64,000 nt of DNA from Candidatus Blochmanniella camponoti (GTDB lineage Bacteria > Pseudomonadota > Gammaproteobacteria > Enterobacterales > Enterobacteriaceae), in assembly GCF_023585825.1 (NCBI RefSeq), contig NZ_CP097751.1, positions 124,001 through 188,000 of the forward strand, written 5' to 3'. The translations under genes and the position numbers were made by a program. Below are positions 18,120 to 42,919 of this stretch, piece by piece. The notes beneath the pieces are model-generated. The model did no database searches. It was not told the DNA's origin and saw only the letters and a list, made by a program, of their open reading frames with translations. Position 1 is the first letter of the stretch. Each line of letters starts with the position of its first letter.

Positions 18120-19568
18120 ATGTCTCAACAATTGAGAAGAACTAAAATTATCGCTACTTTAGGTCCTGCTACAGATAAAGGTAACAATCTTGAAAAAATA
18201 ATTATCTCAGGAGCAAATATCGTACGACTAAATTTTTCTCATGGTAAAACACAAGAACACTTTGTCCGAGCAGAAAAAGTACGCAAAATCGCTTCCAAAC
18301 TAAGTACATATATTGCTATTCTTGGAGATTTACAAGGCCCTAAAATCCGTATCTCTACTTTTCAAGGAAACAAAATATATTTAAAATCTGGAGATAACTT
18401 TTTAATTGATGCCATGATGACGAACAATAATAAAGGTAATCACAAATGCGTAGGTGTTGATTATGAAGAACTCGCACAAGACGTACACCCAGAAGATTTA
18501 CTTCTATTAGATGATGGGAGAATTCAATTAAAAGTTATAACAATCCATAATACTAAAATATATACTAAAGTAATTATTGGAGGTATGTTATACAACAATA
18601 AAGGCTTAAACAAATTAGGAGGAGGGCTTTCAGCGAAAGTCTTAACAAACAAGGACAAAATTGATATTATCACCGCGGCTCAAATTGGAGTTGACTATCT
18701 AGCAATATCATTTCCCCGTAGCAGTATAGATTTAAATTGTGCACGAAAATTAATTGTCGATGCTGGTAGTCATGCAAAAATTATTTCTAAAATAGAACGC
18801 GCAGAAGTAGTTGCATCTGACGAAACAATAGATGATATCATTCACGCATCAGACGCAGTCATGGTAGCCCGAGGAGATTTAGGAGTAGAAATTGGAGAAC
18901 CAGAACTAGTGGGTGTGCAAAAAAAAATAATACAAAGAGCACGCGCTCTTAATCGTGCAGTCATTACCGCAACTCAAATGATGGAATCTATGGTTCATAA
19001 TTCTATGCCTACTCGTGCAGAAGTAATGGACGTAGCTAATGCAGTATTGGATGGTACTGACGCAGTTATGTTATCCGCTGAAACTGCTACAGGTCAGTAT
19101 CCATCTGAAACTGTAGCAGCTATGGCTAATGTATGCTTAGGTGCCGAAAAAATTTCAAACATCAATTTTTTATCAGACATCAACCAAAAAAAAAAATTTG
19201 ATGATATAGAAGAAGCTATCGCTATATCGGCAATGTACACTGCCAATCACCTAACAGGAGTAAGTGCTGTTATTGTTTTGACTGAATTTGAAAGTACTAC
19301 GTTATTAATGTCGCGTATCAATTCAAAATTGCCTATTTTTGCGCTATCCCAACACAAACATATCTTAAATATAGTTACTCTTTACAAAGGAGTTATCCCT
19401 ATTTATTTTAATAAAACAGGGAATAACGTGATAGATGCCAAATATGCTAGTAATTTACTACGTGACAAAGGACTTCTTCTATCTGGTGAATTAGTAGTTG
19501 TGATACAAAATGATATATACAATAAATGTGATGTGATTAATATTAGTCACATTTTACAAGTAAAATAA
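18120..19568 (+). CDS. pykA: Pyruvate kinase II
   Basis: Phosphoenolpyruvate + ADP to pyruvate + ATP. The N-terminus [14 protein letters not shown] and residues such as [16 protein letters not shown] spacing and [25 protein letters not shown] identify the PykA rather than the PykF type. The active-site region is [12 protein letters not shown] and TQMMESM. 482 residues against 480. AAGGA precedes the ATG. An in-frame run of eleven A (19186-19196) encodes Q-K-K-K, the same length as the tract that breaks hisH. Convergent with mepM. Confidence 0.97.
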
Positions 19569-31551: not shown

Positions 31552-31875
31552 CTAATCAATTGTAGATTCTTTAAAATTTTTTAATTTTTTTGACAACTCA
31601 CGACGCTCTTTTGATAACTCTGCATTTTTTATAATATATTCATCTACTCGATCTTCATAATCATTACGCATATTAGCAATAATAACTTGTATCCCTTCTA
31701 TAGAAGTTTCAGACTTAATATAATCACTTAAATCACCCAGCAATAACACTCTTTTTTGATTATCACGAATTTTTTTTTCATTATCAACAATTTCTCGTTG
31801 CAGTTTATTTTTACGACGGAATATACGCACAAATTCTAATACATCATAAAATGATTGATTAACATCATCTCTCAT
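31552..31875 (-). CDS. tmaR: PTS system regulator TmaR (YeeX, DUF496)
   Basis: Small coiled-coil protein that in E. coli clusters at a cell pole and sequesters PTS enzyme I. It is very close to E. coli Yee[33 protein letters not shown], then [20 protein letters not shown]. The tyrosine of DYEDR corresponds to E. coli Tyr72, reported as the phosphorylated residue controlling localisation. About 107 residues against 109. I start at 31875, since AGGA is seven bases upstream; an ATG two codons earlier is too close to it. Nearly all charged and predicted helical. Beside sbcB as in E. coli, and in the same window as manXYZ. Confidence 0.94.
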
Positions 31876-33962: not shown

Positions 33963-34005
33963 ACTAAAGCAATAAAAAATTTTCAATAGGAAGACTGTAC
34001 TTCAT

Positions 34006-34035
34006 ATGTTAATTTATCATCATTACCCTGACTAA
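34006..34035 (+). CDS. hisL: Relic his operon leader peptide
   Basis: A 9-codon frame M-L-I-Y-H-H-Y-P-D-stop, 133 bases before hisG. The E. coli leader ends in seven His followed by P-D-stop. Here two His remain (CAT CAT), flanked by TAT and TAC, which are one C-to-T change from His codons CAT and CAC; P-D-stop is kept exactly. An AGGA (33988-33991) lies 14 bases upstream, rather far. I read it as a decayed attenuation leader. It may or may not still be translated. Confidence 0.7.
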   Translation: MLIYHHYPD

Positions 34036-34167
34036 ATCCTTCAAACACATTTAACAATAGAAACCATTTTCATATTTTATTTATTAAAAATATCAAAGGT
34101 ACTTCTGTTGCAAGAATTTTAAAAAAGTATTTAGTAATGGAAAATTGTTGACATAAGGTAAAATATC

Positions 34168-35067
34168 ATGCTGGATAGATCGCGATTACGAATAGCAATG
34201 CAAAAATCAGGAAGATTGAGCAAAGAATCCCAACAGCTTCTTGAACAATGTGGGATTAAAATTAATTTACAACAACAACGTTTATTAGCGTTTGCGGAAA
34301 ACATGGCTATCGATATAATGCGAGTGCGCGATGATGATATTCCTGGTTTAGTTATGGACGGTATAGTAGATTTAGGTATTATCGGAGAAAATGTATTAGA
34401 AGAAGCATTATTAACGAGACGATCGCAAGGAGATAATCCTTGTTACATTATGTTACTCCGATTAGATTTTGGAGATTGTCGATTATCTATGGCCTTACCT
34501 ATAGATGAACCATGGAACGGTCCAAAATCCTTACAAGGAAAACGAATTGCCACTTCATACCCACATCTTCTGAAACAATATTTAGATAAATTAGGTATTC
34601 ATTTTAAATCTTGTTTACTAAATGGCTCAGTAGAAGTAGCACCACGCGCTGGATTAGCAGATGCAATTTGTGATCTAGTGTCTACCGGAGCTACGTTAGA
34701 AGCTAATGGATTACATGAAGTAGAAGTAATCTATCGATCTAGAGCATGTCTTATTCAACGATCTGGAGAATTATCCAACATAAAACAATCACTAATAAAC
34801 AAATTAATAATTCGTATTCAAGGAGTAATCCAAGCCCGGGGATCTAAATACATCATGCTGCATGCCCCTGCTGAACAACTAGAGGAAATTATTAATTTAC
34901 TACCCGGAGCAGAAAGCCCAACAGTATTGCCATTAGCAGGCAATCAACATCGTGTAGCAATATACATGGTAAGTAATGAAACATTATTTTGGGAAACAAT
35001 GGAAAATTTAAAAAATCTTGGAGCTAGTTCTATTTTAGTATTACCAATAGAAAAAATGATGGAATAA
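34168..35067 (+). CDS. hisG: ATP phosphoribosyltransferase
   Basis: First and feedback-inhibited step of histidine synthesis: ATP + PRPP to phosphoribosyl-ATP. Long form with the C-terminal regulatory domain (about 225-299, with [15 protein letters not shown]), as in enterobacteria; 299 residues, same as E. coli. Key signatures include [16 protein letters not shown] and the PRPP loop [14 protein letters not shown] (about 171-184). AAGGT precedes the ATG. First gene of hisGDCBHAFI. With the attenuator gone, allosteric inhibition through this domain may be the remaining control point. Confidence 0.97.
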
Positions 35068-35071
35068 TATT

Positions 35072-36403
35072 ATGATTTCTCATGAGCATCCTATATCTAT
35101 TTATTGGAATGATTGTTCCAAATCTGAACAAAAAACACTACTTACCCGTCCAATAAATAACAAATTAAACGATATTTATATGAATGTTAAAAATATACTT
35201 ACAAAAGTTTATAACGAAGGCGATCGTGCTTTATTTAAGTTTAATTTTGATTTTGACAACGTACAAACTACACAATTACAAATCCCAACTGAAATTATCA
35301 TGAATTCCGGGCATAACTTGTCTTATGAAATAAAACAAGCAATACATACCGCCATGACCAATATAACACGATTTCATCAAGCACAATGTTATTCAGAAGT
35401 AATCGTGGAAACCCTTCCAGGCGTATATTGCCAACAAATTATTCGCCCATTAAATATTGTTGGACTATATGTACCAGGAGGAACTGCGCCGCTGTTGTCA
35501 ACAGTAATGATGTTAGGTATCCCAGCTCGTATTGCGAAATGTAAACGTGTAATATTATGTTCCCCCCCCCCAATTCCGGACGTAATTATGTATACCGCAC
35601 AACTTTGCGGTATTGATGAAATTTATCAAGTAGGAGGTAGTCAAGCTATAGCCGCTATGGGATTTGGCACTGAGTCTATTCCGAAAGTAGATAAGATATT
35701 TGGACCAGGTAATATGTGGGTTACAGAAGCAAAACGACAAATTAACCTTGCTCCGAATGGAGCTGCTATTGATATGCTAGCTGGACCTTCCGAAATATTA
35801 ATTATTGCAGATAATACGGCTAATCCTATTTTTATCGCAGCCGATCTTTTATCACAGTCAGAGCACGGACCTGATTCACATGTAATACTTATAACACCCC
35901 ACTCGTACATTGCAGAACAAACAAAACAAGAGCTACATAAACAAGTAAAAATACTACCACGAAATGATATAATTCATAATGTATTATTGAATAGTCGCAT
36001 GATTATTACTAACAATTTAATGGAATGTTTTTCTATCAGTAATAGTTATGCTCCAGAACATTTGATTATTCAAATTGAAAATGCATCAGATTATTTACAT
36101 TACATCACGAATGCCGGATCAATATTCCTTGGAAATTGGTCTCCGGAAACTGCTGGAGATTATGCAAGCGGGCCTAATCACGTCTTACCTACATACGGGC
36201 GCGCAGTTACCACATCTGGTCTAGGAGTTATAGATTTTCAAAAAAGAATGTCGGTACAACAATTAACCCAAAATGGATTATTGCAACTATCATCAACCAT
36301 TACGACATTAACACAAATCGAACAATTAAAAGCTCATGAATACGCCATAACACATCGTATAAACTATATAAAGGAACAAAATGAACGTTCGTTACTTGGC
36401 TAG
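35072..36403 (+). CDS. hisD: Histidinol dehydrogenase
   Basis: Last two oxidations, histidinol to histidine, zinc-dependent. Conserved PGGTAPLLSTVMM, KIFGPGNMWVTEAKR, IDMLAGPSEI, SQSEHGPDS (zinc/active-site region) and SYAPEHL. 443 residues against 434. Four bases after hisG; overlaps hisC by 23. It contains a run of ten C (35562-35571) coding for S-P-P-P, remarkable in such AT-rich DNA; the frame is intact through it. Confidence 0.97.
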   Translation: MISHEHPISIYWNDCSKSEQKTLLTRPINNKLNDIYMNVKNILTKVYNEGDRALFKFNFDFDNVQTTQLQIPTEIIMNSGHNLSYEIKQAIHTAMTNITRFHQAQCYSEVIVETLPGVYCQQIIRPLNIVGLYVPGGTAPLLSTVMMLGIPARIAKCKRVILCSPPPIPDVIMYTAQLCGIDEIYQVGGSQAIAAMGFGTESIPKVDKIFGPGNMWVTEAKRQINLAPNGAAIDMLAGPSEILIIADNTANPIFIAADLLSQSEHGPDSHVILITPHSYIAEQTKQELHKQVKILPRNDIIHNVLLNSRMIITNNLMECFSISNSYAPEHLIIQIENASDYLHYITNAGSIFLGNWSPETAGDYASGPNHVLPTYGRAVTTSGLGVIDFQKRMSVQQLTQNGLLQLSSTITTLTQIEQLKAHEYAITHRINYIKEQNERSLLG

Positions 36404-37457
36404 GAATAATATATTAACTCTTAAACCTTATCAATCTGCTAGAAAATGTACACATTCAGGTAACATATGGCTGAACGCTAATGAATTTCCAATTGCTCCC
36501 GACTATCATTTTCGTTATGAAAAAATTCATAGATATCCTACTTGTCAACCACAAGAAGTAATCAACAATTATGCTTATTATGCCGGGGTTCGATCTGATC
36601 AAATTTTAGTGTCAAGAGGAGCCGATGAAAGTATTGAATTATTAATGAAAGTTTTTTGTAATCCTGGAAAAGACGTTATTATATTTTGCCCGCCGACATA
36701 CGGTATGTATAAAACCACTGCAGAAATTTTAGGAATTAATTATCGGATTATACCTAAAAAGAAAAACTGGCAACTTGATTTAGCATCCATTGAATCACAA
36801 CTAAATAATGTTAAATTAATTTATATTTGTAACCCAAACAACCCTACTGGTAACATTATTCATTTAAATAGTTTAAAAAAGTTATTAAACATTATTCAAA
36901 ACCGAGCGTTATTAGTAACCGATGAAGCATATATTGATTTTTGCCCGGACGCAAGCCTAGTACGTTGGCTATCAATGTATCCTCATCTAGTTATCTTAAG
37001 AACTTTATCTAAAGCTTTCGCGTTAGCAGGATTGCGCTGTGGTTTCACTTTAGCTAATCCAGAAATTATTAAATTATTAGAAAAAGTGATCGCACCATAC
37101 CCATTGTCTACTCCGGTAATTGATATCGCAGAACAAGCTCTAACCCCTGCAAGCATACAATACACCCAGAATAGAATAGCTACAGTCAATACAAATCGAA
37201 ACATTTTAATTACGGGCTTAAAACAATGTTCTTGTGTTCAACAAGTATTTAATAGTAACGCTAATTATGTATTGGTTAAATTCAATCCAAAATATCAGGT
37301 TTTTAAGACATTGTTGCATCAAGGTATAGTTTTAAGAGATCAAAGCAATCAACCAGGATTAGTTAATTGCTTGCGTATCACTGTCGGCACATATAATGAA
37401 TGCAAACACGTAGTTTCTGTTTTAAAAAAATTACATGTTACATCATTATCTATATAG
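36381..37457 (+). CDS. hisC: Histidinol-phosphate aminotransferase
   Basis: PLP enzyme converting imidazole acetol phosphate to histidinol phosphate. Class I/II aminotransferase fold with NPNNPTGN (substrate region), DEAYIDF, and the PLP lysine in LRTLSKAFALAGLRCG. 358 residues against 356. ATG 36381 lies inside the end of hisD, with AAGGAA about six bases upstream, implying coupled translation. Confidence 0.97.
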   Translation: MNVRYLARNNILTLKPYQSARKCTHSGNIWLNANEFPIAPDYHFRYEKIHRYPTCQPQEVINNYAYYAGVRSDQILVSRGADESIELLMKVFCNPGKDVIIFCPPTYGMYKTTAEILGINYRIIPKKKNWQLDLASIESQLNNVKLIYICNPNNPTGNIIHLNSLKKLLNIIQNRALLVTDEAYIDFCPDASLVRWLSMYPHLVILRTLSKAFALAGLRCGFTLANPEIIKLLEKVIAPYPLSTPVIDIAEQALTPASIQYTQNRIATVNTNRNILITGLKQCSCVQQVFNSNANYVLVKFNPKYQVFKTLLHQGIVLRDQSNQPGLVNCLRITVGTYNECKHVVSVLKKLHVTSLSI

Positions 37458-37473
37458 ATAAATAGGAGCGCTC

Positions 37474-38544
37474 ATGAATCATAAAGTTTTATTTATAGAT
37501 CGTGATGGAACCTTAATTAATGAACCAAAAGACAATTTTCAAATTGATTCTTTAGACAAATTCTCATTGGAACCATATGTGATTCCTGCTCTTATAGCGT
37601 TGAAAAATATAGGTTTTGAATTTGTTATAGTTACTAATCAAAATGGATTAGGAAGTGCTTCATTTCCTAGAGAAAAATTTGATAAACCACATCATCTAAT
37701 GATTCAAATATTTCAATCTCAGGGTATTAAATTCAATCAAATACTAATTTGCCCTCATCTTCCTGAAGAACAATGTAGTTGCCGTAAACCAAAAACTGCA
37801 TTAGTAAATTCTTGGCTAATCGATAACAAATTAAATAAATTTAATAGTTATGTTATCGGGGATCGAAATACTGATATGATTTTAGCAACTAATATGGATA
37901 TTCAAGGAATACAATATAATCGTACTAATTTTGGTTGGAAAAAAATTAAAAACTATTTAACGCAACGTCACAGATCAGCACATGTTCATCGCATCACTGA
38001 AGAAACTAATATAGATGTCACGATATGGTTAGATCAAAATAATAAAAGTTACATTAATACTGGAATTAATTTTTTTAATCATATGTTACAACAAATAGCT
38101 GTGCATGCTGGATTATGCATGAATATTACGGCAAAAGGCGATTTACATGTAGATGATCATCATACTGTAGAAGATACAGCTTTAACATTAGGAAAAGCTT
38201 TAAACACTGCGTTGGGCAACAAATGTGGCATTGGAAGATTTGGATTTACCTTGCCTATGGATGAAAGTATTGCGCAATGTGTATTAGATCTTTCTGGACG
38301 GACATACTTTTACTATGAAGCTAACTATACTTTTCAAAAAATAGGAGATCTCAGCACTGAAATGATAGAACATTTTTTTCGTTCATTATCTTCAAAAATG
38401 GGTTGCACTTTACATTTACAAGCAACTGGCAAAAATGATCATCATAAAGCAGAAAGTTTATTTAAATCTTTCGGACGATCATTACGTCAAGCCATTTACA
38501 TAGACAATAATAACATACCAAGCTCTAAAGGAACATTGCTATGA
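37474..38544 (+). CDS. hisB: Bifunctional histidinol-phosphatase / imidazoleglycerol-phosphate dehydratase
   Basis: Fusion as in enterobacteria. N-terminal HAD phosphatase (about 1-165) with DRDGTL (Asp9, Asp11), TNQNGLG and a CxH/CxC zinc-type loop ([15 protein letters not shown]). C-terminal dehydratase (about 166-356) with [14 protein letters not shown] and HFFRSL...[12 protein letters not shown] metal-binding histidines. 356 residues against 355. AGGAG precedes the ATG. Its stop overlaps the hisH start (ATGA). Confidence 0.97.
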
Positions 38545-39130
38545 ATATAGTTATTATAGACACCAACTGCTCTAATTTATTATCTGTAAAAACCATGCTG
38601 CATAGATTAGGACATAACCCAATAATAAGTGACAGAGCTGATGTTATATCTCAGGCGGACAAACTGTTTTTACCAGGAGTAGGCGCTGCTTCATCCGCAA
38701 TGAAACAATTAAAAAAAAAAATCTAATTACATTGATACAAAATTGTACTAAACCAATATTAGGTATTTGTTTAGGAATGCAATTATTTGGATCCATAAGT
38801 TCTGAAAATAATGGTGTAAATACTTTAAACATTATTCATACACCTGTTAAACGTATGCAATACCACGATTTGCCCCTGCCACATATGGGGTGGAACACTA
38901 TTACTATTCCGAAAAAACATTTTTTATTTTATGGTATAAAAGAGAATGATTATTTTTATTTTGCACATAGTTATTTCATGGAAATATGTTCTGCAACAAT
39001 TTCTCAAACAAATTACGGACAATTATTTAGTTCAGTTATAAACTACAAAAATTTTTTTGGTGTACAATTTCATCCAGAAAAATCAGGAATGCCTGGGCAA
39101 CAATTAATAAAAAATTTTTTGGAGATATAA
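38541..39130 (+). CDS. hisH: Imidazole glycerol phosphate synthase glutaminase subunit, split by a frameshift at an A11 tract
   Basis: Class I glutamine amidotransferase that feeds ammonia to HisF. The frame from 38541 runs 61 codons and stops at 38724-38726, just after eleven A (38711-38721). The rest (to 39130) is in another frame. With one extra A the reading becomes [15 protein letters not shown], which aligns without a gap to E. coli V-R-E-R-E-L-F-D-L-I-K-A-C-T-Q, and the total is 196 residues, the E. coli length. The catalytic Cys (GICLGMQ), His and Glu (QFHPEKSG) are all in the second part. Neighbours and the second half look fully selected. Rescue by polymerase slippage is likely; a true pseudogene is the alternative. 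Confidence 0.9.
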
Positions 39131-39133
39131 TTT

Positions 39134-39874
39134 GTGATTATTCCTGCGTTAGATATTATTAACGGAAATATAGTTAGACTGTATCAAGGATCTTATCATA
39201 TGCAAACTAATTACGGAGAACCTATATCATTATTGAGAAAATACATACAACAAGGAGCAAAAATGATACATCTAGTTGATCTAGATGGAGCAAAAAATCC
39301 ATCAAAAAAACAAAGTTTATTAATTAGTCAATTAATAAAAGAAGTTACTCCTCTATCTAAGATACAAATAGGAGGGGGTATACGTAACGCTGCAGATGTA
39401 GAAATTCTGTTAGAATCAGGAGCAACACGTATAGTATTAGGTTCTATAGCAGTTACACAACCAAAAATAGTAAAAAAATGGTTTGAATATTTTGATCCAA
39501 ATACTTTAGTGCTAGCGGTAGATATACACGTTTATTCTGAAGAAAATCGAAAAATTGCTATTTACGGTTGGCAAAAAGAAACTAATTTTCAATTAGAACA
39601 AATAATAGAAGAATATTATACTGTAGGTTTAAAACATGTTATTTGCACAGATATCTCCAAAGATGGAACTTTGTTAGGTAGCAATATATCTTTATATCAA
39701 TCAATATGTCATTCTTGGCCGCAAATAGCATTTCAATCGTCTGGAGGTGTTAATAAATTAGCAGAAATATCTAAATTACGTTCTTCTGGAGTAGCAGGAA
39801 TCATTATTGGTCGTGCTTTTTTAGAAAATACATTTACTATCGATGAGGCTATATCATGTTGGCAAAACGGATAA
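39134..39874 (+). CDS. hisA: ProFAR isomerase
   Basis: Isomerises 5'ProFAR to PRFAR. TIM barrel with the phosphate-binding signatures QIGGGIR and QSSGG / GIIIGRAF; catalytic Asp in IPALDI (about residue 7) and in CTDISKDGT. 246 residues against 245. Starts with GTG at 39134, with GGAG nine bases upstream inside the end of hisH; overlaps hisF by 19 bases. Confidence 0.97.
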
Positions 39875-40632
39875 TTCCTTGTCTTGATGTAGCTAATAAC
39901 AAAGTAATCAAAGGAATACAATTTAAAGATCACAAAATTGTAGGAGATATCTTAGAATTAGCAAATAGATATGCAAAATCAGGAGCTGATGAATTAGTAT
40001 TTTATGACATCACGGCATCACCTAATGATCAAGTAGTGAATAAGAGATGGATTTCTCAGATTGCTAAGGTAATAAATATACCATTCTGTGTTGCTGGAGG
40101 CATAAGTACATTAAAACAAGCTAAACAAATTCTTGCATCTGGAGCAGACAAAATTTCAATTAATTCTCCTGCTTTAATTAACCCAATGCTAATCCAAGAA
40201 CTAGCTGATCATCTCGGCACACAATGCGTTGTAGTTAGCATCGATACCTGGCATAATCCTAAAAAAAAGATTTACCAAGTAAAATGCTATACTGGGGACA
40301 GTGCTCGTGCAAAAATCACAACATGGCAAACATTGGATTGGGTTAAAAAAGTACAAGAATATGGAGCTGGGGAAATAGTATTAAATATGATGAATCAAGA
40401 TGGAATGAAAAACGGTTACGATTTAGATCAACTACGGAATATTAGAAAACATTGTAAAGTACCACTTATAGCTTCTGGCGGAGCTGGTACCTATCAACAT
40501 TTCTTAGAAGCCTTTCGTGATGCCGATGTAGATGGGACGTTAGCGGCTTCAGTGTTTCATAATCAAATTATTGATATTCATAAATTGAAACAATTTTTAG
40601 ATAAAGAAGGGATAAAAGTTAGATTATGCTAA
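39856..40632 (+). CDS. hisF: Imidazole glycerol phosphate synthase cyclase subunit
   Basis: TIM-barrel partner of HisH; makes imidazole glycerol phosphate and AICAR from PRFAR and ammonia. CLDVANNKV (catalytic Asp near residue 11), [15 protein letters not shown] (second catalytic Asp), [13 protein letters not shown] and LIASGGAGT are conserved. 258 residues, same as E. coli. HisF can use free ammonia poorly, which is relevant if HisH is low. Overlaps hisI by seven bases. Confidence 0.97.
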
Positions 40633-41267
40633 TTAAAAATCAGCATCAGCAATTAAATTGGACTAAAAATCATGGTCTAATACCCGCTATCATACAACAT
40701 GCTGAATCAGGAGAAGTATTAATGCTAGGACATATGAATAAAGAATCAATGATAAAAACCGAGCAAACTAAGCATATTACTTTTTTTTCACGCAGCAAAA
40801 ACAGATTATGGACTAAAGGAGAAAAATCTGGAAATATATTAAAATTAATCAATTGGTATTCAGATTGTGATCAAGATGCATTATTAATTTTCGCTTTGCC
40901 TCATGGACCTACTTGTCATAATAATACTAGCAGCTGCTTCCATCCTGGAATAGCAGAATTAAGTTTTCTTCATCAATTAGAAAACATTATATCCTCAAAA
41001 AAAAACATACCATCCCATCTCATTAATACATCCTACACATCTCGTTTATATGATAGTGGTGTCAAACGCATTGCTCAAAAAGTTGGTGAAGAAGGCCTAG
41101 AAACGGCCCTTGCAGCAATTTCCTGTTGTAATACAAAAGAACTCATTAATGAAGCATCAGATCTAATTTATCATTTATTAGTCCTATTACAACATAAATC
41201 ATTAAGTTTTAATGCAATCATCCAGGAATTAAAAATTCGAAATAACGATAACAAATTAAATCAATAA
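40626..41267 (+). CDS. hisI: Bifunctional PR-AMP cyclohydrolase / PR-ATP pyrophosphatase
   Basis: Catalyses steps 2 and 3 of histidine synthesis. N-terminal cyclohydrolase (about 1-115) with [28 protein letters not shown] and CHNNTSSCF cysteines for zinc. C-terminal MazG-like pyrophosphatase (about 120-213) with [10 protein letters not shown] and [14 protein letters not shown]. 213 residues against 203. Last gene of the operon, with an intergenic hairpin after it facing gnd. Confidence 0.97.
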
Positions 41268-41431
41268 ACAGTAATATTATACACATAAAATAATATTATA
41301 ATAAAACCAAACAAACACTAATTTTATTAGTGATGATATATAATATCATATTATATAGGAATACCAATTAATTTATTAAACATACAATAAAAACAGTCCT
41401 AATGAATAAAAACTAATAAATTTTGATATCT

Positions 41432-41460
41432 CCAATATCCCATTATATGTGGGATATTGG
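41432..41460. terminator. Stem-loop between convergent hisI and gnd
   Basis: CCAATATCCCA (41432-41442) / TGGGATATTGG (41450-41460), 7-base loop, then TTGTT; on the other strand it is followed by AGATATCAAAATTT. G-C pairs make it a good bidirectional terminator candidate. Confidence 0.6.
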
Positions 41461-41509
41461 TTGTTACTTAAATTATTTAATTAATATTGAAACAATATTC
41501 TTCTTATAT

Positions 41510-42919
41510 TTATTTTAACCAATCAGTGTGAAACGCACCTTTTTTATCAAAACACGTATAAGTATGTGCTCCGAAACAATCTCTTTGAGCTTGAATAAGA
41601 TTTGCAGGTAACACATTACTGCGATAACTATCATAATACGCTATAGCAGCAGATAACGTAGGCATTGGAATACCGTGTTTAATGCCGCACACTACCACCT
41701 CTCTCAACATTTGGTGGTAATCATTCGCGATATTAACACAATACGGAGACAATAACAAATTAGTAACATCTGGAGTTTGGGAATAAATATCAATAATTTT
41801 TTGTAAAAATTTTGATCTAATTATACATCCCGCACGAAAAATTTGAGCAATTTGTTTGTAATTTAAATCCCAATGATACTTATCAGACGCAATTTTCAAT
41901 TGATAAAAACCTTGCGCATATAAAATAATCTTGCTAAGATACAATGCTTTTCGCGCCTTTTCTAAATATAAACATTTGCTCTCAAAACAATTTTTTCTAT
42001 TAGGTCCTAACAATATTTTTGATGCTTTAAGACGTTGTTTTTTAAGTACAGACATATAACGAGCAAACACTGATTCAGTAATCATACCTAATGGTGTTCC
42101 TAAATCGATTGCATCTTGACTAGCCCATGCTCCAGTACCCTTATTTCCAGCCACATCTAATATAGAATCAAGAATATAATCATGATTAGCATCTTTTCTA
42201 ACGAATATGCGACTTGTTATTTCAATAAGATAACTATTTAATTCGCCTTGATTCCATTTATTAAAAATTTCTCCTAATGCCTCGTGAGTTAAATGAAATA
42301 TATTTTTTATAAAAAAATATATTTCAGCAATTATTTGCATATCTCCGTACTCTATGCCGTTATGTATCATCTTGACATAATGACCAGATCCATTTGGTCC
42401 TATATATGCAACACAAGTTTCATCATTAACACGAGCAGCAATTTTTTTAAAAACCGACTCAACCATTTTATATGCATCAATTTGCCCTCCAGGCATAATC
42501 GATGGCCCTTTTAAAGCCCCTTCTTCTCCCCCAGAAATACCAGTTCCAATAAAGTTTATCCCTTGTTTTGATAACTCAAGATTACGACGCATAGTATCTT
42601 TATAAAATGAATTACCTCCATCAATTAAAATATCTCCCGGATTCATATAAGGGGACAATATTTTTATAACATTATCGATATGCGTTCCTGATGTAATCAT
42701 TAAAAATATAAAACGAGGTTTATTTAAGGATAGTACAAACTCCTCTATTGAATAACATGGGATGATATTTTTTTTTGGATTAGTAGTAACAACTGCATCG
42801 GTTTTATCCTTAGAACGATTGTAAATGGCAACACAATAACCTTTACTTTCGATGTTTAATGCTAAATTTCGACCCATAACACCCATACCGATAATACCAA
42901 TCTTTTGTTGTTTGAACAT
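41510..42919 (-). CDS. gnd: 6-phosphogluconate dehydrogenase, decarboxylating
   Basis: NADP-dependent step of the pentose phosphate pathway giving ribulose 5-phosphate, which is also the substrate for GutQ. N-terminal Rossmann motif [15 protein letters not shown], then [18 protein letters not shown] and [13 protein letters not shown] (catalytic Lys and substrate binding), and the all-alpha C-terminal domain. 469 residues against 468. AGAGGAG precedes the ATG by five bases. It adjoins the his operon as in E. coli. Confidence 0.98.

What the first reader, a model, noticed from the sequence alone, without database searches (positions are those of the whole stretch)
38541..39130. hisH broken by a frameshift exactly at an 11-A tract, with every sign of continued selection
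Seen: the first frame ends two codons after A11 (38711-38721); one more A restores a 196-residue protein aligning without gaps to E. coli HisH, with the catalytic Cys, His and Glu intact. All seven other his genes are whole. Known: RNA polymerase slippage on poly(A) tracts has been reported to rescue frameshifted genes in Buchnera and Blochmannia. Inferred: a fraction of transcripts with 12 A (or 9) make functional HisH, so histidine output may depend on slippage rate. Unassisted HisF using ammonia is a fallback.
Basis: partly seen in the sequence, partly recalled or inferred. Interest (0 to 1): 0.85.

Follow-up and report, generated by a model that had tools for sequence, protein, structure and literature searches.

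The report
Slippage-rescued hisH in ant symbiont
A histidine-making gene of an ant's bacterial partner has its reading frame broken at a run of eleven A's, yet ten related species keep the same break and still select for the whole protein, so the cell probably reads past the break by a copying slip already reported for this genus.

Summary
In a 790,946-base Blochmannia genome, hisH is split at an uninterrupted A11 (38711-38721). The first frame stops at 38724-38726; the second carries the rest. Read across the tract, the 196-residue product scores 214 bits as HisH (cut-off 105) with Cys77, His178 and Glu180; the seven other his genes are whole.

Ten of 14 Blochmannia genomes carry the identical A11 break and form one clade (bootstrap 98-100), so it arose once. 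In those ten, dN/dS is 0.102 both before and after the break; 1.0 is strongly rejected. One result against: on this genome's own branch the second half shows 6 replacements to 3 silent changes, although 5 of 6 are residues seen in intact orthologues.

Transcriptional slippage is the best explanation. It is not new: a 2016 review reports 12-50% frame-corrected transcripts for frameshifted genes including a histidine gene of an ant endosymbiont, and hisH is the only broken his gene in B. pennsylvanicus. A 2025 paper calls hisH a pseudogene in several lineages; the selection data speak against that. Still open: why none of the ten has returned to the in-frame length although non-coding runs nearby change length readily.

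The parts
38541..38726 (+). hisH zero frame: start ATG 38541, 61 codons, stop TAA 38724-38726 just after the A tract
   Evidence: matches HisH model TIGR01855 positions 1-57, 56.1 bits, below the 105.4 cut-off on its own
38711..38721 (+). uninterrupted A11 tract, proposed slippage site; identical in 10 of 14 Blochmannia species genomes
38720..39130 (+). second hisH frame: 136 codons from AAT 38720-38722 plus stop, with catalytic Cys77, His178, Glu180
   Evidence: TIGR01855 positions 66-197, 149.4 bits; dN/dS 0.102 in the ten frameshifted species; residue numbers
37474..38544 (+). hisB, whole; overlaps the hisH start by 4 bases
39134..39874 (+). hisA, whole
39856..40632 (+). hisF, whole; partner of HisH
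   Evidence: PF00977 His_biosynth
34168..37457 (+). hisG (34168-35067), hisD (35072-36403), hisC (36381-37457), all whole
   Evidence: hisG; hisD, hisC
40626..41267 (+). hisIE, whole

Best explanation
hisH carries an old fixed frameshift at A11. RNA polymerase slips on the A-rich stretch and makes a mixed pool of messages; the fraction whose tract is one A longer (or two shorter) encodes full-length HisH, which serves HisF as its glutaminase subunit. Shown here: the break, its single origin among the genomes held, the unchanged tract, and low dN/dS on the second half across the clade. Inferred from published work on B. pennsylvanicus and on RNA polymerase: that the correction happens in the RNA, and how often.
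For: Same A11 break in 10 of 14 genomes; the ten are one clade on seven other his genes (bootstrap 100 protein, 98 nucleotide). dN/dS within the ten: first half 0.102, second half 0.102, other his genes 0.025-0.140; a value of 1 rejected for the second half with 2dlnL 241. Subgroups: 0.080 in the four closest species, 0.078 and 0.080 in two other sets of four. Of 13 A/T runs of 9 or more that could be aligned in all nine other frameshifted species, two are identical in all nine: hisH A11 and a T9 in tmaR. In 13 of 18 Blochmannia HisH proteins taken as in frame a non-lysine residue breaks the corresponding lysine run, against 0 of 10 frameshifted genomes (for 3 of the 18, P0019, P0020 and P0022, no contig was listed). 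Single-base insertions at A/T runs rise exponentially with run length, up to 11 in Buchnera (PMC5574713, passages). 12-50% corrected transcripts for frameshifted genes including a histidine gene of an ant endosymbiont (PMC5009743, passages); in G003, whose length is that of B. pennsylvanicus, hisH is the only broken his gene.
Against: No transcript or peptide of this genome was read. On its own terminal branch the second half has 6 replacement and 3 silent changes against 17 and 70 in the other his genes (Fisher p 0.005, uncorrected for the four tips tested), a ratio that neutrality could give. In the four in-frame genomes the second half has a lower dN/dS (0.061), but their trees are saturated and hisA, hisB, hisC and hisD are lower there too. 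Silent sites alone do not prove that the tract is held: the chance that a Leu and three Lys codons all keep their third A in this clade is about 0.46 x 0.76^3 = 0.2 counts. The Buchnera/E. coli transcript survey found no case in which a transcription error restored a frame (PMC5574713).
Confidence: 0.85

Rival explanations
1. The ribosome, not RNA polymerase, corrects the frame: tRNA-Lys slips back one base on A AAA AAA within the tract, giving the same protein.
For: The tract contains A AAA AAA in the right frame. The product would be identical, so selection data cannot tell the two apart.
Against: No conserved stimulators: Shine-Dalgarno-like pairing in the 24 bases upstream is weak in 9 of 10 species (-5.6 kcal/mol in G006, -1.1 to 0.4 in the others), and the 86 bases from the end of the tract onward fold no better than shuffles (z from -1.36 to 1.16 in the ten). 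Ribosomal slipping needs about seven A (recalled), whereas all eleven are kept. Corrected transcripts are reported for this genus (PMC5009743). Some unstimulated ribosomal slipping could add to the yield.
Confidence: 0.1
2. hisH is a pseudogene and HisF works with free ammonia, as a 2025 paper on related lineages proposes.
For: [quoted passage not shown] This genome has urease and glutamine synthetase. On its own branch hisH has 6 replacement to 3 silent changes.
Against: dN/dS 0.102 after the break in ten species, equal to that before it; no stop and no frame-breaking indel in the second half in 10 of 10 (G002 is one codon longer). On this branch 5 of 6 replacements go to residues seen in 24 orthologues taken as in frame, 28% expected, P 0.008.
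Confidence: 0.04
3. Split protein: the second half is translated on its own from an internal start and joins the first half.
For: In G000 a TTG in the second frame begins six bases past the stop of the first frame, five bases lying between (38732).
Against: The second frame has no ATG, GTG or TTG in its open stretch upstream of the tract in 10 of 10 species, and none between the tract and the catalytic Cys in G006, G011, G009 and G002; a TTG at the place of 38732 exists in 4 of 10.
Confidence: 0.01

Closest known systems
Frameshifted genes of Buchnera and Blochmannia rescued by transcriptional slippage (Tamas et al. 2008; Wernegreen, Kauppinen and Degnan 2010)
   Same: Same genus, and by deduction the same gene: the review names a histidine gene of an ant endosymbiont and Blochmannia pennsylvanicus, with 12-50% corrected transcripts (PMC5009743, passages); hisH is the only broken his gene in the genome with B. 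pennsylvanicus length. The 2010 title speaks of ancient frameshifts kept by selection in homopolymers (reference lists).
   Different: This genome is another species representative. The two papers themselves are not held, so their gene and species lists could not be compared; the ten-species single origin and the comparison with in-frame sister lineages were computed here.
Transcriptional slippage in dnaX and in Citrobacter tssM
   Same: Slippage on a homopolymer gives two message pools (dnaX in passages; tssM title in a listing).
   Different: Those have described products of two lengths; here no role is known for the short product (61 residues).
In-frame hisH of B. floridanus (G001)
   Same: It too has an uninterrupted A11 at this place, preceded by G.
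   Different: There the genome frame is intact, so slippage would lose product instead of making it (inference).

Membership tests
HisH, glutaminase subunit of imidazole glycerol phosphate synthase | score above the curated cut-off of TIGR01855 | tested here: met
   read-through 214.4 bits, cut-off 105.4; the second frame alone also passes with 149.4
HisH, glutaminase subunit of imidazole glycerol phosphate synthase | Cys-His-Glu triad | tested here: met
   Cys77, His178, Glu180; that these are the E. coli catalytic positions is recalled
HisH, glutaminase subunit of imidazole glycerol phosphate synthase | encoded in a his operon near hisF | tested here: met
   order hisG D C B H A F IE in the window
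Slippage-rescued frameshifted gene | single frame break inside a homopolymer of about 9 or more A or T, otherwise whole | tested here: met
   A11, no other break
Slippage-rescued frameshifted gene | purifying selection on the part behind the break | tested here: met
   dN/dS 0.102, 2dlnL 241 against 1; own-branch exception noted
Slippage-rescued frameshifted gene | break and tract persist across species | tested here: met
   10 of 14 genomes, one clade
Slippage-rescued frameshifted gene | mixed transcript lengths at the tract | not testable with these tools
   no RNA data held; reported for an ant endosymbiont in PMC5009743
Programmed -1 ribosomal frameshift (dnaX-like) | slippery A AAA AAA in frame | tested here: met
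Programmed -1 ribosomal frameshift (dnaX-like) | upstream Shine-Dalgarno-like and downstream structural stimulators | tested here: not met
Pseudogene | relaxed selection behind the break | tested here: not met
   for the clade; own-branch ratio equivocal

The most novel reading that the evidence does not exclude
The frameshifted state itself is selected: A11 works as a fixed attenuator that sets HisH dose (or the HisH to HisF ratio) through the slippage rate. One observation asks for such a cause. A one-base length change would return the gene to its in-frame length, and A/T runs of 7 or more in non-coding DNA of this window differ by an indel in 45 of 58 tract-by-species comparisons with three close species; yet none of ten species has made that change over a clade with up to 36% third-position divergence in the his genes. 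As I recall it, the 2010 paper already raised lower expression as a possible benefit, so even this would be a test of a standing idea.
Probability: 0.25. Interest if true: 0.65.

Novelty: already known. Interest (0 to 1): 0.4.

Why it matters
It is a clean natural case in which a genome sequence read literally gives the wrong answer: a gene for an essential amino acid that looks dead is under strong selection across its clade. A 2025 paper on this genus reads hisH as lost (PMC12779916, section 14), so the matter affects current metabolic inference. The ten-species clade with in-frame sister lineages makes the open question directly testable: why a frame break that one length change could undo has stayed in place, crudely for 12-17 million years (hand-scaled branch lengths and the 16-20 million years in PMC4389277).

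Tried and rejected
Assembly error: rejected, the same tract is in ten species genomes. Pseudogene: rejected for the clade by dN/dS. Several origins or reversions: not needed on the genomes held, since the ten are one clade and the 11 unnamed full-length HisH proteins with a listed contig (P0005-P0009, P0011-P0015, P0021) fall outside it. Five protein clusters inside the clade (P0001-P0004, P0010; 20 member sequences) are full length in UniProt/nr; whether their DNA is in frame or the annotation was corrected could not be told. Programmed ribosomal shift signals: none conserved. RNA families at gathering score in 34000-42000: none. Frameshift elsewhere in the family: among listed matches from 198 genomes (158 with a match) only this one had a second-frame opening under 195 residues, but the list of matches was cut and the sample held one other Blochmannia. 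The pyruvate kinase A11 run looked like a second broken gene in G003 (A12) but the gene is open throughout. The four in-frame genomes were tried as a dN/dS control but their trees are saturated (length 20 for the first half of hisH, 6.8 for the second), so I do not lean on them. Scripts with faults: file name; report file missing; checked in 34, redone in 35; five loci not yet reverse-complemented; redone in 26; alignment columns taken as residue numbers for the six replacements; replaced by 66.

Full report
What is there. The window lies in a single-contig genome of 790,946 bases. hisH opens at 38541, runs into A11 at 38711-38721 and stops at 38724-38726; the rest of the gene lies in the frame that starts at AAT 38720-38722 and ends at 39130. 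Each part alone matches HisH (56.1 and 149.4 bits), the read-through 214.4 bits over a cut-off of 105.4; its best solved relative is a HisH (4gud, E 3.5e-61). It aligns with 0 gaps over 196 residues to Erwinia tasmaniensis HisH and has Cys77, His178, Glu180. The other seven his genes are whole.

How widespread. The genus search covered the 14 Blochmannia genomes held. Ten have exactly A11 and the same break; four are in frame: B. vafer with an interrupted run, B. floridanus with TTG and then A11, B. obliquus and B. turneri with interrupted runs. A tree from the seven other his genes puts the ten in one clade, sister to B. floridanus plus B. vafer (bootstrap 100 on protein, 98 on DNA). A HisH protein tree with database relatives gives the same split (95). 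The 11 unnamed full-length proteins with a listed contig (P0005-P0009, P0011-P0015, P0021; Blochmannia by their place in that tree) all lie outside the clade. So the break most simply arose once. The four Camponotus species sequenced first span the origin of that genus, some 16-20 million years (PMC4389277, passages); scaling branch lengths by hand, the crown of the ten is about 0.75-0.84 of the split from the in-frame sisters, hence a crude 12-17 million years (inference).

Selection. Codon models on the ten only, tract codons left out: first half 0.102, second half 0.102; hisG 0.025, hisF 0.064, hisB 0.088, hisI 0.091, hisC 0.093, hisD 0.112, hisA 0.140; dN/dS of 1 is rejected for the second half with 2dlnL 241.0. 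Without G002 the second half gives 0.101. Sets of four: 0.080 (G000, G008, G003, G010), 0.078 (G008, G003, G010, G007), 0.080 (G011, G013, G009, G006). In the four in-frame genomes the second half gives 0.061, but there hisA, hisB, hisC and hisD are lower as well (0.050, 0.044, 0.048, 0.071) and the trees are saturated.

Result against. On the terminal branch of this genome the second half shows 6 replacement and 3 silent changes, the other his genes 17 and 70 (Fisher p 0.005, one of four tips tested; the other three tips p 0.74 to 1). A neutral branch would give about 2.5 to 1, so 6 to 3 is compatible with neutrality (the part that does not use the faulty numbering). But 5 of the 6 replacements lead to residues found in 24 orthologues taken as in frame, where 28% would be expected (P 0.008). 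I read this as a few tolerated changes, three of them to the residue most common in those orthologues, not as loss of function; a recent relaxation in this one species cannot be excluded.

The tract. Of 20 A/T runs of 9 or more in the window, 13 could be aligned in all nine other frameshifted species (7 dropped: not aligned in at least one species, three of them beyond the stretches fetched). Two of the 13 are identical in all nine, hisH A11 and a T9 in the tmaR gene. Fourteen-base windows in codon phase are fully invariant in the ten species in 10 of 2396 cases over the his genes, tract excluded, and in 0 of the 186 that lie in hisH. Among 18 Blochmannia proteins taken as in frame 13 have a non-lysine residue among the first three positions after the leucine; 0 of 10 frameshifted genomes do (Fisher p 0.00025, ignoring that the ten share one origin; for P0019, P0020 and P0022 the DNA state is not known). 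Silent sites alone are weak evidence (about 0.2). Runs of 7 or more outside the listed reading frames differ by an indel in 45 of 58 tract-by-species comparisons with G008, G003 and G010, inside them in 6 of 237 (the three species are not independent, AT-rich spacers align poorly, and any gap in the aligned run was counted). So length changes are frequent where they are tolerated, and neither loss of A's nor return to the in-frame length is seen in hisH.

Mechanism. Transcriptional slippage explains the long unbroken run, the absence of ribosomal-shift stimulators, and the published transcripts: PMC5009743 says that in cell wall genes of an aphid endosymbiont and a histidine gene of an ant endosymbiont slippage gives 12-50% corrected messages, and names Blochmannia pennsylvanicus for the same reference (passages). 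In G003 hisH is the only broken his gene, so that gene should be hisH; this step is mine, since Tamas et al. 2008 is not held and PMC3017870 does not contain the word hisH. PMC3017870 gives 30% full-length transcripts for such genes (passages). Single-base insertion at A/T runs is the main transcription insertion and grows exponentially with run length (PMC5574713, passages), which favours the message one A longer over the one two A shorter. The same paper saw no frame-restoring case in Buchnera or E. coli. An unstimulated ribosomal slip would give the same protein and may contribute. An internal restart is excluded as a general answer: no start codon in the second frame before the catalytic Cys in G006, G011, G009 and G002.

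Against the pseudogene reading. [quoted passage not shown] G011 differs by one base from the BSEQ length and belongs to the frameshifted clade; its set of four gives dN/dS 0.080 for the second half. This genome holds urease and glutamine synthetase, so both ammonia and glutamine are plausible; that does not separate the readings, selection does.

What is known and what is added. Slippage rescue in this genus, very likely of this gene, is published; long persistence is in the title of the 2010 paper (seen in reference lists only). Searches of the open library showed the 2025 pseudogene claim; I saw no ten-species analysis of hisH in their listings, but subscription papers are not covered and most listed papers were not opened. 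Of PMC12779916 I read the abstract, sections 13, 14 and 16 and passages; of PMC3017870, PMC4389277, PMC5009743, PMC5574713 and PMC3812077 passages only. Added here: a single origin across ten species, equal constraint before and after the break, the contrast with in-frame sister lineages, and the puzzle that none of the ten has returned to the in-frame length.

Noticed in passing
window 19186-19196: In-frame A11 in the pyruvate kinase gene; A12 in G003, by a substitution as I read the aligned letters, and a shorter run in G011; the gene matches as one frame in all nine other species.
   Followed up: yes
window 31770-31778: T9 in the tmaR (PTS regulator) gene is identical in all nine other frameshifted species, the only other run so conserved among 13 of length 9 or more.
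   Followed up: no
L099 (G001, B. floridanus length): hisH is in frame but also holds an uninterrupted A11, so slippage there should lose full-length messages.
   Followed up: no
L096 (G002): hisH of this species holds a further A10 in frame about 200 bases after the broken A11.
   Followed up: no
   Followed up: no
window 38723-39127: This genome's own branch shows 6 replacement to 3 silent changes in the second half of hisH, unlike its three closest relatives.
   Followed up: partly
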